64,000 nucleotides of DNA, taken from Affinibrenneria salicis (GTDB taxonomy: Bacteria; Pseudomonadota; Gammaproteobacteria; Enterobacterales; Enterobacteriaceae). Of the stretch, positions 47,084-56,780 are shown one piece after another (the first letter of the stretch is position 1; the number at the start of each line of letters is the position of its first letter). The position numbers and the translations under genes are program-made. The notes under the pieces are model-generated. The model was not told the DNA's origin, did no database searches, and was given only the letters and a program-made list of their open reading frames with translations. The DNA lies in the NCBI RefSeq assembly GCF_008710095.1, contig NZ_VYKJ01000007.1, positions 124,001-188,000 on the forward strand, in the 5' to 3' direction.

Positions 47084-47812
47084 TCAATGCGTCAGCACCT
47101 GCTGCAGGAATTCCCGCGCGCGCTGCGACTTCGGCGCCTGGAAGAACTGCTCCGCGTCGGTATCTTCGACAATCTCTCCCGCATCCATAAACAGTATCCG
47201 ATCGGCAATTTTGCGCGCGAAGCCCAGCTCATGCGTTACGCAGAACATGGTCATGCCGTCGCGCGCCAGCTCGGCCATCACCGCCAGCACCTCCGCCACC
47301 ATTTCCGGATCCAACGCGGATGTCGGTTCGTCAAACAGCATCGCGCGCGGCTCCATCGCCAGCGCCCGGGCGATAGCGACGCGCTGCTGCTGACCGCCGG
47401 ACAGCTGCGCCGGGTATTTATCGGCGTGCTCCAGCAGACCGACGCGCCGGAGCAGCGCCTGGCCTTTGCTGATCGCGGCCGCTTTATCGCGCTTTAAGAT
47501 CTTTCTCTGCGGAATTACCAGATTATCCATCACGGTCAGATGCGGGAACAGCTCGAATGACTGAAACACCATGCCGACCTGACGGCGCAGCTCCGGCAGA
47601 TGGGTATTTTTATCGCCCAGCCGCATCTCATCGATCTGGATGTCGCCCTGATCAAAAGTTTCCAGCGCGTTGATGCATTTAATCAGCGTCGATTTGCCGG
47701 AGCCGGATGGGCCGCAAACCACAATGACCTCGCCGGTATTCACCTGAACGGAGCAGTTCTTCAGCACCTGAAAGTTGCCGTAAGACTTGCAAAGATTGTT
47801 GATTTTTATCAC
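47084..47812 (-). CDS. polar amino acid ABC transporter ATPase
   Basis: 242 residues from a GTG at 47812 with GGAG 7 nt upstream; the frame further up belongs to the M20 gene in another phase. Walker A GPSGSGKST, FQSFELFPHL, LSGGQQQRVAIARALA, LFDEPTSALDPEMV, THELGFA. No permease or binding protein is in this operon; the partners are the genes at 53026 and 53880 on the other side of the shared operator. Last gene of the leftward operon after the M20 amidohydrolase, whose stop it nearly touches. Confidence 0.92.
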   Translation of the reverse strand: MIKINNLCKSYGNFQVLKNCSVQVNTGEVIVVCGPSGSGKSTLIKCINALETFDQGDIQIDEMRLGDKNTHLPELRRQVGMVFQSFELFPHLTVMDNLVIPQRKILKRDKAAAISKGQALLRRVGLLEHADKYPAQLSGGQQQRVAIARALAMEPRAMLFDEPTSALDPEMVAEVLAVMAELARDGMTMFCVTHELGFARKIADRILFMDAGEIVEDTDAEQFFQAPKSQRAREFLQQVLTH

Positions 47813-47813
47813 T

Positions 47814-49049
47814 TCATACTCCTTCGGACAGCAGAGAGAACAGGCTGTTCGCCACAACATGCGTGGCCAGGCGCAAATCTTCCAGCCGCACGCGTTCGTC
47901 GGCGCGGTGGGCATTCGCTTCGAGCAGCGTGCGCGGACCGGCGCCGTACATGATGGTGGGAATACCGGCGCTGCTGTAGAGGCGGGCATCGGTATAGAGC
48001 GGCAGGCCGACCACCGGAATCGGCTCGCCCAGCACGGCTTCGGCTTCCCGGCACACCAGCGCCGCCAGCCGATCGCTGCCCGCCACCGGGGTAAACGGGC
48101 GCGCCAGCAGGATTTGGCGCACCTGAATCGTCACCTGCGGCAGCATCTCATCCACGCGGGCGATCAGCGCGCGCATCTCGGCTTCAACCTCTTCCGGCGA
48201 CTCTTCCGGGATAATGCGTCGGTCCAGCCGCAGAGTCAGCGTATCGGCCACCACATTGGTATTGATGCCGCCGTTGATTAAGCCGACTACCATGGTCGGA
48301 TGGCCGATGCCGGGAATGGCCGAGCGGCGCTGCGCCAGACTATCGCGATAGGCGTACAGCGCCTGCAGTAGCGGTACGCCGGCCTCGATGGCGTCGACGC
48401 CGCTGTCCGGCATCGCCGCGTGGGCCGACACGCCCTTCACCGTGATCTCCAGGTGCAGGCAGCCGTTGTGCGCAGTGACCACGTGGTAGGGCAGCGCCGC
48501 GCAGATCACGTAATCCGGCTTACTTTTGCCGTTATCGAGGATCCAGCCTGGGCCGGTCTGGCCGCCGGTCTCTTCATCATAGGTCACGTGCAGCTCAACG
48601 CAGCCGGCAAGGGGCGGCGCCAGCTGTTTCAGCGCCCGCAGCGCGCAGGCGAAGGTGGTGATATCCGATTTGGACACCGCGGCGCCCCGGCCGTACAGCC
48701 AGCCGTCGTGGATCTCCGCGCCGTAGGGATCCACGCTCCAGCCCTGTCCGGGCGGCACCACATCGCCGTGCGCGTTGAGCGCGATAGTCGGGCCGGCGCC
48801 GAAACGCTCGCGCACAATCAGGTTGGTCGCGCTGCGCATGCCTGCGTCCTGCACAATGTCCGCCGGTACCTGATGGCGCTCCACCGTGAACCCCATCGCC
48901 TCCAGCAACTGGGCCGTACGTTCCGCATGCGGGGCGCAGTCGCCCGGCGGATTATCCGACGGCGTCTGTACCAGGGCTTTCAGCATATCGACCTGGGCGG
49001 CGAAGTCGTCGTCAATCAGGGTTGCCAGTCGTTGTTTATCCACATTCAT
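47814..49049 (-). CDS. M20 family amidohydrolase/peptidase
   Basis: 411 residues. Metal-binding residues H94-GD96 in LNAHGDVVPPG, YGRGAAVSKSD (129) at the bridging-Asp position, E159-E160 in TYDEETGG, and a distal His near the C-terminus. The AVSKSD variant replaces the usual A.DMKGG but is known from a subgroup of carbamoyl/acyl amino acid hydrolases in rhizobia-like loci. It should cleave an amide such as an N-carbamoyl or N-acyl amino acid. With the hydantoinase at 54626 it could complete a hydantoin-to-amino acid pair. Sits 14 bp after the fused oxidase gene. Confidence 0.87.
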   Translation of the reverse strand: MNVDKQRLATLIDDDFAAQVDMLKALVQTPSDNPPGDCAPHAERTAQLLEAMGFTVERHQVPADIVQDAGMRSATNLIVRERFGAGPTIALNAHGDVVPPGQGWSVDPYGAEIHDGWLYGRGAAVSKSDITTFACALRALKQLAPPLAGCVELHVTYDEETGGQTGPGWILDNGKSKPDYVICAALPYHVVTAHNGCLHLEITVKGVSAHAAMPDSGVDAIEAGVPLLQALYAYRDSLAQRRSAIPGIGHPTMVVGLINGGINTNVVADTLTLRLDRRIIPEESPEEVEAEMRALIARVDEMLPQVTIQVRQILLARPFTPVAGSDRLAALVCREAEAVLGEPIPVVGLPLYTDARLYSSAGIPTIMYGAGPRTLLEANAHRADERVRLEDLRLATHVVANSLFSLLSEGV

Positions 49050-56044: not shown

Positions 56045-56093
56045 TTCGTTACAATTAGCCCCTTACTTTATGGACAACAGGTAAACACGCTCC

Positions 56094-56780
56094 ATGCCAG
56101 ACTATCAGGATCACGCGCTTGCCGCGATTATGGCGGCCAAGCCGCTTTATCTGAAATCAGCCAGTCTCTCCGAGCAGATTTACCTGCTGCTGCGGGAGCT
56201 GATTCTGGAAAGGAAAATTCCGGGCAGCAGCGAGATGTCTGAATCGCGGCTGGCTGACGAATTGCAGGTATCGCGCACGCCGATGCGTGAAGCGTTGGTC
56301 CGACTGGCGGGCGAAAATCTGCTGGTGAGGCGCGGCGCCCGCTCTTACGCGGTGCGTTCCGTCGATATTAAAGAATATCTGGACACCATGGCGCTGCGCG
56401 AACTGCTGGAGTGCGAGGCGGTAAACCGCGCGGTAGAGCGTATCGACCTGGGCGAACTCGGCCAGTACGCCAGCGAACTGCAGGCGTTGATGTCTGGCGA
56501 GCATGAAGAACATATTTACTGGCGCTTCGATGACCGGCTGCACAATTTTATCGCCGAATCCTCCGGCAATAAGGTGTTGGTGCAGATGCTGGAAAAGCTG
56601 CGTATTAATGTGCGCCTGTTTCGCCTGCACAGTCCGCTGCATCGCCAGAATGAAAATCATGTTGAGCACCAGGATATTATTAATTACCTGACTCAGCGCG
56701 ATACGTTAAAAAGCGTCGAGGCGATGCGATTGCATATTAGTAAATTACGCAACGACGTAATTAGTTCTTTATCCGGCTGA
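56094..56780 (+). CDS. GntR family (FCD) transcriptional regulator
   Basis: 228 residues. Winged helix in SLSEQIYLLLRELILERKIP, SESRLADELQVSRTPMREAL and GENLLVRRGARSYAVRSV, then an FCD helical effector domain with LRELLECEAVNRA, WRFDDRLHNFIAESSGN (metal/ligand residues) and HVEHQDIINYL. Last in the rightward operon, 49 bp after the hydantoinase gene. Probably controls both divergent operons through the palindrome at 52021-52056. Confidence 0.92.
   Translation: MPDYQDHALAAIMAAKPLYLKSASLSEQIYLLLRELILERKIPGSSEMSESRLADELQVSRTPMREALVRLAGENLLVRRGARSYAVRSVDIKEYLDTMALRELLECEAVNRAVERIDLGELGQYASELQALMSGEHEEHIYWRFDDRLHNFIAESSGNKVLVQMLEKLRINVRLFRLHSPLHRQNENHVEHQDIINYLTQRDTLKSVEAMRLHISKLRNDVISSLSG

What the first reader, a model, noticed from the sequence alone, without database searches (positions are those of the whole stretch)
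47084..56780. Self-contained divergent catabolic locus of unknown substrate
Eight genes from 47.1 to 56.8 kb form one unit. Leftward: fused FAD/Fe-S oxidase, M20 amidohydrolase, ABC ATPase. Rightward: DapA-like lyase, binding protein, permease, hydantoinase, GntR regulator. The transporter is complete only when both operons are combined, so they must act together. The chemistry suggests import, ring or amide opening, oxidative deamination and C-C cleavage or deamination of a cyclic or N-substituted amino acid. I know of hydroxyproline, opine and hydantoin clusters but not of this combination.
Basis: partly seen in the sequence, partly recalled or inferred. Interest (0 to 1): 0.85.

Follow-up and report, generated by a model that had tools for sequence, protein, structure and literature searches.

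The report
Conserved amino-acid breakdown gene cluster
Eight neighbouring genes in a Gibbsiella-like bacterium form one set, probably under one switch and kept together in some distantly related plant- and soil-living bacteria, that probably imports a capped or ring-shaped amino acid and takes it apart; the compound itself is still unknown.

Summary
In detail: eight genes at 47,084-56,780 form two divergent operons. They are one unit: all eight families lie together in 10 of 55 usable related loci (Erwiniaceae, Comamonadaceae); DapA-like lyase, binding protein and permease accompany the fused oxidoreductase in 39 of 55. In Enterobacterales the locus is rare: 2 of 394 sampled genomes.

The 87-bp divergent promoter holds a 38-bp nested palindrome with GTATAC half-sites. 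Of divergent loci with full flanks, GTATAC is present in 19 of 20 with a GntR gene nearby and 0 of 11 without, so one regulator probably drives both operons.

The "oxidase" is a fused gamma-alpha-beta flavin/Fe-S dehydrogenase of the opine/D-hydroxyproline kind. The DapA-like enzyme keeps catalytic Lys and Tyr but lacks the DHDPS arginine. Hydantoinase and M20 are exchangeable for PTE, another M20 or DUF3830, and relatives of these hydrolases can sit in ureide gene sets.

Best reading: import of a ring- or N-capped (probably N-carbamoyl) amino acid, ring opening, decapping, C-alpha dehydrogenation, lyase step. Substrate unproven; not the hydroxyproline pathway. New variant of a known kind.

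The parts
47084..47806 (-). ABC transporter ATPase, polar amino acid (GlnQ-like) type; GTG start
   Evidence: Pfam ABC_tran; NCBIfam best PRK09493 310.2 bits, below its cut-off 379
47814..49049 (-). M20 amidohydrolase, ArgE/DapE type (called M20A here); likely removes the N-carbamoyl or N-acyl cap
   Evidence: Pfam M20 and M20_dimer; TIGR01910 214.6 bits, just under the cut-off 217.6; AHGDVVP, SKSD, DEETGG and AHRADE stretches (metal site by recall) largely conserved in 21 rows
49064..51997 (-). Fused gamma-alpha-beta flavin/Fe-S amino-acid dehydrogenase (977 aa)
   Evidence: Fer2_4, Pyr_redox_2, Fer2_BFD and DAO in one chain; cofactor motifs invariant or nearly so in 20 sequences
52020..52057 (.). 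38-bp nested palindrome with GTATAC-like half-sites, presumed GntR operator shared by both operons
   Evidence: read from sequence; 2 of the 5 GTATAC of the 64-kb window lie here; co-occurrence with a GntR gene 19 of 20 against 0 of 11
52085..52984 (+). DapA-like class I lyase without the DHDPS arginine
   Evidence: PF00701; Lys164, Tyr136 in 79 of 79 rows, Thr141 at the Arg position
53026..53856 (+). Periplasmic binding protein, amino-acid family 3
   Evidence: SBP_bac_3; Arg112 and Asp203 in 51 of 51 rows
53880..54626 (+). Permease of a polar amino acid ABC transporter (single permease gene)
   Evidence: BPD_transp_1 and TIGR01726 above cut-off
54626..56044 (+). D-hydantoinase/dihydropyrimidinase-type cyclic amidohydrolase
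   Evidence: NF009941 749.7 and TIGR02033 531.4 bits, both above cut-off
56094..56780 (+). GntR regulator, FadR subfamily (FCD domain), presumed repressor of both operons
   Evidence: GntR and FCD domains; operator co-occurrence
57665..58894 (+). Ureidoglycine-glyoxylate aminotransferase homologue, 884 bp downstream; possible but not necessary partner
   Evidence: 767.7 bits to PDB 3nnk, 450 to PucG 3isl; near the cluster also in Gluconacetobacter L047, not found at E<=1e-80 in 9 of 9 Comamonadaceae genomes with the cluster

Best explanation
A GntR-controlled catabolic locus for an amino acid (or imino acid) carried in a cyclic-ureide/hydantoin-like or N-carbamoyl (N-acyl) form. Proposed steps: (1) the ABC transporter imports the compound; (2) the hydantoinase opens the ring; (3) M20 removes the carbamoyl/acyl cap; (4) the fused dehydrogenase takes two electrons from the N-C-alpha bond of the freed amino acid and passes them through flavins and [2Fe-2S] to the respiratory chain, giving an imine or 2-oxo acid; (5) the DapA-like lyase forms a Schiff base with it and cleaves or dehydrates it to pyruvate-level products. 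When the inducer is absent the GntR dimer sits on the nested GTATAC palindrome between the operons and shuts both. Shown by computation: gene families, conserved co-localisation, operator co-occurrence, cofactor and catalytic motifs. Inferred: substrate class, order of steps, electron acceptor, repression.
For: Unit: 10 of 55 loci with all eight families, 39 of 55 with DapA, binding protein and permease. Enzymes stay together when the transporter changes: TRAP-type genes (by eye, and for the receptor) instead of ABC in L099 (DapA-HYD-M20-dehydrogenase-GntR) and L100. A more distant homologous set with split subunits also carries a hydantoinase beside DapA': L107 (with DUF3830), L120, L122 and L123. 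Shared operator: 19 of 20 loci with a nearby GntR against 0 of 11 without (Fisher p 1.4e-7, not corrected for kinship); GTATAC fits the FadR-subfamily consensus GTM-N0-1-KAC and its 2-nt GT/AC spacing, listed for HpxS and HypR among others (PMC4494728 passages). Ureide chemistry: M20A relatives lie in tandem with allantoate amidohydrolase, hydantoinase relatives beside PuuE/ureidoglycolate lyase or Asp/Glu racemase, DUF3830 relatives beside or near cyclic amidohydrolases or near ureidoglycine aminohydrolase; L099 lies beside genes that I read by eye as NCS1 permease, hydantoin/allantoin racemase and PuuE. M20A and DUF3830 do not co-occur: 15 and 12 of 55, overlap 0 (P 0.013 if loci were independent). 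Dehydrogenase motifs: C57/C62/C65/C78, two GxGxxG, R912-x-W914 invariant or nearly so in 20 sequences. Lyase Lys164 and Tyr136 79/79. SBP Arg112 and Asp203 51/51; some of these rows are repeat fetches of one locus.
Against: Hydantoinase is missing within 9.5 kb in 15 of the 39 loci with DapA, binding protein and permease, so the ring-opening step is not universal there; of six whole genomes searched one has no hydantoinase relative at E<=1e-60. Fourteen of the 55 loci have no DapA-like gene at the threshold. M20A is ArgE/DapE-like, and carbamoylase-type M20 models are not among the 25 NCBIfam hits shown of 47. No substrate evidence exists. The ureide link is guilt by association, from eight regions that I picked out of long hit lists.
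Confidence: 0.45

Rival explanations
1. The core is an imino-acid or opine-like pathway: transporter, fused dehydrogenase and DapA-like lyase work as the D-hydroxyproline dehydrogenase/Pyr4H2C deaminase pair does, on another cyclic or N-substituted amino acid; hydantoinase, PTE, M20 and DUF3830 are exchangeable feeders that open lactams or remove acyl caps, with no ureide chemistry.
For: DapA, binding protein and permease go without hydantoinase in 15 of 39 loci. The dehydrogenase shares most of the motif set of opine and D-hydroxyproline dehydrogenases (PMC4575208 passages). LhpC shares the YNNP and ES...GA.GWI...SN stretches with this DapA. Lactam opines exist, and a Ti-plasmid paper suggests ring openers for them, though of the HyuA/HyuB (oxoprolinase) kind, another family (PMC6733357 passages).
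Against: Identity to LhpB is 27%, to a Ti-plasmid opine-type beta subunit 29%, to LhpC 29%; relatives of the hydrolases occur with ureide genes.
Confidence: 0.3
2. Allantoin/allantoate breakdown: hydantoinase as allantoinase, M20 as allantoate amidohydrolase, the 57,665 aminotransferase turning ureidoglycine into oxalurate, the dehydrogenase oxidising glycine or ureidoglycine.
For: The 57,665 gene is a ureidoglycine-glyoxylate aminotransferase homologue; it also lies near the cluster in Gluconacetobacter L047, ends an ABC operon of the split-subunit set in Pantoea L120, and in a Klebsiella record follows an ABC operon next to hpxU and hpxX.
Against: Allantoinase models score far below the D-hydantoinase model; the aminotransferase is not found at E<=1e-80 in 9 of 9 Comamonadaceae genomes that have the cluster; no GTATAC lies near it; the lyase has no role.
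Confidence: 0.1
3. A hydroxyproline (trans-4-hydroxyproline) catabolic cluster.
For: Same two superfamilies, flavin dehydrogenase plus DHDPS family, with amino acid ABC transporter and GntR.
Against: No match to the S. meliloti epimerase at E<=1e-5 in the loci held (its own locus apart), none at E<=1e-25 in 5 of 11 whole genomes with the cluster; no aldehyde dehydrogenase among the eight genes; a Variovorax genome (G003) has an epimerase hit beside split alpha/beta hits on another contig.
Confidence: 0.03
4. Two unrelated operons that merely lie back to back.
For: None beyond the divergent arrangement.
Against: Order kept in Erwiniaceae and Comamonadaceae, transporter split over both operons, shared operator region.
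Confidence: 0.02

Closest known systems
Flavin-containing opine dehydrogenase OdhABC and D-hydroxyproline dehydrogenase LhpB/gamma/alpha
   Same: Domain set gamma [2Fe-2S], alpha FAD with Cys cluster, beta DAO with RxW (PMC4575208 passages); lhp genes seen in L111
   Different: Here one 977-aa chain in the order gamma-alpha-beta; beta part 27-29% identical to LhpB and to a Ti-plasmid opine-type beta subunit; alpha cysteine spacing differs
[quoted passage not shown]
   Same: DHDPS superfamily partner of a flavin dehydrogenase (PMC4113996 passages); the LhpC-position protein of L114 shares the YNNP motif
   Different: 29% identity to that LhpC, 31% over 140 aa to HypD (gene names LhpC and HypD assigned by position and recall); no epimerase or KGSA dehydrogenase beside it
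D-hydantoinase/dihydropyrimidinase
   Same: Passes TIGR02033 and NF009941 cut-offs; best solved relative by sequence 1nfg
   Different: Partner enzymes are an ArgE/DapE-type M20, a flavin dehydrogenase and a lyase
hpx/puc ureide gene sets (HpxS regulator, PucG-type aminotransferase)
   Same: FadR-type site with 2-nt spacing as listed for HpxS (PMC4494728 passage); a PucG-type gene next door in this window
   Different: The eight-gene unit has no AllC-type allantoate amidohydrolase by its family hits; the aminotransferase is dispensable across relatives

Membership tests
gamma-alpha-beta flavin dehydrogenases (OpnDH/D-HypDH) | [2Fe-2S] motif C-X4-C-X2-C-X11-12-C in gamma | tested here: met
   C57, C62, C65, C78 invariant in 20 sequences
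[quoted passage not shown]
   G121, G126, G608, G610, G613, R912 and W914 invariant, G123 nearly so
gamma-alpha-beta flavin dehydrogenases (OpnDH/D-HypDH) | Alpha motif C-X-C-X15-20-C-X4-C | tested here: inconclusive
   C494, C496, C529, C534 invariant, but the middle spacing is 32
gamma-alpha-beta flavin dehydrogenases (OpnDH/D-HypDH) | Three separate subunits | tested here: not met
   One chain
gamma-alpha-beta flavin dehydrogenases (OpnDH/D-HypDH) | Activity on an opine or D-hydroxyproline | not testable with these tools
   needs protein
trans-4-hydroxyproline pathway | Proline-racemase-type epimerase in the cluster | tested here: not met
   none among the window's eight genes; no match to the S. 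meliloti epimerase in the loci held, its own locus apart
trans-4-hydroxyproline pathway | KGSA dehydrogenase in the cluster | tested here: not met
   no aldehyde dehydrogenase among the eight genes
DHDPS (lysine biosynthesis, DapA) | Catalytic Tyr and Schiff-base Lys | tested here: met
   Y136 and K164 in 79 of 79 rows
DHDPS (lysine biosynthesis, DapA) | Arg138 (E. coli numbering, recalled) | tested here: not met
   Thr141 aligns to Arg in three solved DHDPS and to Thr in the best hit 3na8; Thr in 73 of 79 rows; yet TIGR00674 is passed by 2.8 bits
D-hydantoinase/dihydropyrimidinase | Family model above curated cut-off | tested here: met
   TIGR02033 531.4 against 393.25; NF009941 749.7 against 647
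D-hydantoinase/dihydropyrimidinase | Ring opening of hydantoin or dihydropyrimidine | not testable with these tools
   needs protein
N-carbamoyl-amino-acid hydrolase (M20 carbamoylase/AllC) | Carbamoylase-type M20 model among the best hits | tested here: not met
   not among the 25 hits shown of 47; best is ArgE/DapE
GntR, FadR subfamily | GntR HTH plus FCD domain | tested here: met
GntR, FadR subfamily | Site of the form GTM-N0-1-KAC at the target promoter | tested here: met
   GTATAC twice within 52020-52057; binding itself not tested
GntR, FadR subfamily | Outer TKGT/ACMA boxes | tested here: inconclusive
   only one side fits in the window (TTGTATAC); over 51 sites with enough flank in relatives the commonest neighbours are C before (19) and G after (29), from tandem GTATACGTATAC

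The most novel reading that the evidence does not exclude
An undescribed route, shared by scattered plant- and soil-living proteobacteria, for a ureide-capped amino acid, in which a cyclic amidohydrolase and an exchangeable decapping enzyme (M20A, another M20, or the function-less family DUF3830) feed one dedicated fused dehydrogenase and one dedicated DapA-like lyase; DUF3830 would thereby get its first function, a decarbamoylase or deacylase.
Probability: 0.3. Interest if true: 0.7.

Novelty: new variant of a known kind. Interest (0 to 1): 0.5.

Why it matters
It ties families of unknown or loosely guessed role (a fused flavin/Fe-S dehydrogenase, whose search returned 2,502 relatives at E<=0.001, not all of them fused; a non-DHDPS DapA group; DUF3830) to one testable pathway with a predicted operator, and suggests a nitrogen-rich compound that unrelated plant- and soil-living bacteria use. 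Binding-protein ligand screening could name it directly.

Tried and rejected
Rejected: hydroxyproline cluster; biosynthetic DapA; chance juxtaposition; an obligatory ureidoglycine aminotransferase. Led nowhere: the window has no held genome; the ligand of the TRAP receptor in L099, whose solved relatives in the list are mostly named only DctP subunit or sialic-acid-binding protein; the SBP alignment, where a canonical Asp (recalled) is one column off, although Asp203 is invariant; a pattern search for the palindrome with a wrong spacing, 0 matches; a sigma-70 scan, nothing in the intergenic region; a first family count swamped by shadow ORFs. Trees of beta and DapA parts had many weak forks and meeting long branches, so I use identities only. 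Literature: DUF3830 (0 papers) and combinations of the families (1 listed, 10 listed, 12 of 46 listed); I saw listings only, and no listed title or abstract start names this gene set; subscription papers are not held. Passages of PMC4016543 did not bear on it. Dropped rows: 27 of 82 loci for short flanks; seven repeat or short fetches (one, L096, has two GTATAC) and 11 loci with cut flanks (one, L011, has GTATAC); L037 is the one against (a GntR near, no site). L001 and L089 are near-duplicates, and several Variovorax loci are close kin. Rows include repeat fetches.
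Full report
What is there. Domain searches give ABC ATPase, ArgE/DapE-type M20, a 977-aa Fer2-Pyr_redox-BFD-DAO fusion, a DHDPS-family protein, a family-3 binding protein, a polar amino acid permease, a D-hydantoinase/dihydropyrimidinase and a GntR-FCD regulator. The fused protein is 97% identical to one named Gibbsiella quercinecans, so the window is probably from that genus; no whole genome is held for it.

Is it a unit? Of these 82 loci, 55 have at least 5.5 kb on both sides of the fused gene. 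In them: DapA-like gene 41; DapA with binding protein and permease 39; of these 39, 25 also have the ATPase and 24 the hydantoinase; all eight families 10 (Variovorax, Rhodoferax, Pantoea, Tatumella); two more Variovorax loci lack only a detected ATPase. The order and divergent layout of the window can be read in the gene strings. Fourteen of the 55 have no DapA-like gene at the threshold, so the wider fused or alpha-beta family also occurs elsewhere. Because loci were selected by the fused gene, these counts say how often the others accompany it, not the reverse.

Spread. In Enterobacterales 2 of 394 sampled genomes have a relative at E<=1e-120, one of them the Pantoea genome used as centre; in a phylum sample 4 of 398, the same Pantoea included. 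G+C of the cluster is 61.5% against 57.1% for the first 39 kb and 58.4% for the last 5 kb of the window. Patchy spread by transfer is likely, but I did not test it with a species tree.

Variants. Three layers appear. The core is transporter, lyase and dehydrogenase. A ring-opening layer is the hydantoinase or a phosphotriesterase-family protein (PTE), the latter in 7 of 55 loci, 5 of them without hydantoinase. A decapping layer is the window-type M20 (15 of 55), another M20 (13), or DUF3830 (12); M20A and DUF3830 do not occur together in the 55 (chance of no overlap 0.013 if loci were independent, which they are not). Among the 41 DapA loci, 29 have hydantoinase or PTE and 33 have one of the decapping families. 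In an Enterobacterales genome (L099) and another genome (L100) TRAP-type transporter genes stand in place of the ABC genes, while lyase, hydantoinase and dehydrogenase (and in L099 an M20) stay together (receptor family). A distant homologous set with separate gamma, alpha and beta genes, a DapA' and a two-permease ABC transporter also comes with a hydantoinase: Paraburkholderia L107, with DUF3830, Pantoea L120, and Gluconacetobacter and Asaia, where it abuts the fused set. The enzymes therefore seem to travel as a chemical module rather than with one transporter.

Control. Between the divergent operons lie 87 bp. Positions 52020-52057 read as two nested inverted repeats with four GTATAC-like half-sites. 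The window has five GTATAC in 64 kb, two of them here. In loci with the same divergent pair, the window included, 19 of 20 with a GntR-family gene near the dehydrogenase have at least one GTATAC in this gap and 0 of 11 without such a gene do (Fisher p 1.4e-7; loci are related, L001 and L089 are near-duplicates, so the p-value is too small; 11 loci with cut flanks were left out, one of them with a site). GTATAC fits the FadR-subfamily consensus GTM-N0-1-KAC and the 2-nt GT/AC spacing listed for HpxS and HypR among others; the outer TKGT/ACMA boxes fit only in part (PMC4494728, passages only). One regulator for both operons is therefore likely. Repression, rather than activation, is inferred.

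Enzymes. The dehydrogenase has the [2Fe-2S] cysteines, two GxGxxG motifs and the Arg-x-Trp described for opine and D-hydroxyproline dehydrogenases, invariant or nearly so in 20 sequences; the second cysteine cluster has a spacing of 32 instead of the printed 15-20 (PMC4575208, passages only). The Pseudomonas opine enzyme is a dehydrogenase, not an oxidase (same passages). The beta part of the fused chain is 27% identical to LhpB, 29% to a Ti-plasmid opine-type beta subunit and 37-38% to two split beta subunits of Rhodobacterales plasmids. The lyase keeps Tyr136 and Lys164 in 79 of 79 rows and Thr48 in 76, but has Thr141 where three solved DHDPS have Arg; the best solved hit, 3na8, also has Thr there. 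It is 29% identical to the LhpC-position protein of a P. aeruginosa record. The binding protein keeps Arg112 and Asp203 in 51 of 51 rows, as expected (by recall) for a ligand with a carboxylate and a nearby N-H; the aligned position of the Asp is one column off, so this is weak. Rows include repeat fetches.

What substrate? Relatives of the hydrolases can lie with ureide genes: M20A with allantoate amidohydrolase in Azospirillum and Roseomonas, hydantoinase with PuuE allantoinase and ureidoglycolate lyase in a Klebsiella plasmid and with Asp/Glu racemase in Diaphorobacter, DUF3830 with amidohydrolases in Rhizobium and Azospirillum and near ureidoglycine aminohydrolase in Paracoccus. These regions and L107 were chosen by me from long hit lists and are not a count. 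The neighbouring 57,665 gene is a ureidoglycine-glyoxylate aminotransferase homologue (3nnk 767.7 bits, PucG 3isl 450 bits; PucG's role from PMC6522883, passages), but it has no GTATAC nearby and is not found at E<=1e-80 in 9 of 9 Comamonadaceae genomes that carry the cluster. So ureide chemistry is favoured, allantoin itself is not.

Membership. It is not the hydroxyproline pathway: no epimerase among the eight genes, no match to the S. meliloti epimerase in the loci held (its own locus apart), none at E<=1e-25 in 5 of 11 cluster-bearing genomes, no KGSA dehydrogenase among the eight, and a separate epimerase hit beside split alpha/beta hits on another contig of a Variovorax genome. It works like the LhpB-LhpC pair in using a flavin dehydrogenase together with a DHDPS-family enzyme (PMC4113996 and PMC6608401, passages).

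Verdict. A real, conserved, probably co-regulated catabolic unit whose parts are known kinds, in a combination that my literature searches did not find described (listings from the full text of open papers only). The substrate remains open.

Noticed in passing
window 39051-45115: A second amino acid unit: M20-like (+), then leftward DAO-like flavoprotein, ABC ATPase, permease and binding protein, with an IclR-like regulator divergent at 44330 (binding protein, the rest named by eye); G+C 63%. Its M20 is 30% identical to the cluster's M20.
   Followed up: partly
window 57665-58894: Ureidoglycine-glyoxylate aminotransferase homologue standing apart from other ureide genes that I could recognise between 47 and 59 kb; 81% identical to a Klebsiella protein.
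   Followed up: partly
window 45860-47017: A ketoacyl-ACP-synthase-III-like ORF (named by eye, no family search) sits between the two amino acid units.
   Followed up: no
L120:1-8212: Homologous set with split gamma/alpha/beta genes, DapA', hydantoinase, two-permease ABC transporter and the aminotransferase as last gene of the ABC operon, on a Pantoea plasmid; related sets, in whole or part, in L107, L047, L053, L072, L055, L015.
   Followed up: partly
L100:8061-8462: A small protein, by eye like the C-terminal domain of allophanate hydrolases, lies between hydantoinase and an EamA-like gene in a locus where no window-type M20 or DUF3830 was matched; not searched against a family library.
   Followed up: no
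L084, L085: Lyases 54% and 50% identical to the cluster's occur with acyl-CoA dehydrogenase and MaoC genes (and a CoA-transferase in L085), without a flavin dehydrogenase of this kind in the annotated stretch: the same lyase group seems to serve another pathway.
   Followed up: no
L047 15095-17623, L053 15220-17805: A TonB-receptor-like protein (by eye) follows M20 in two Acetobacteraceae loci, suggesting outer-membrane uptake of the substrate.
   Followed up: no
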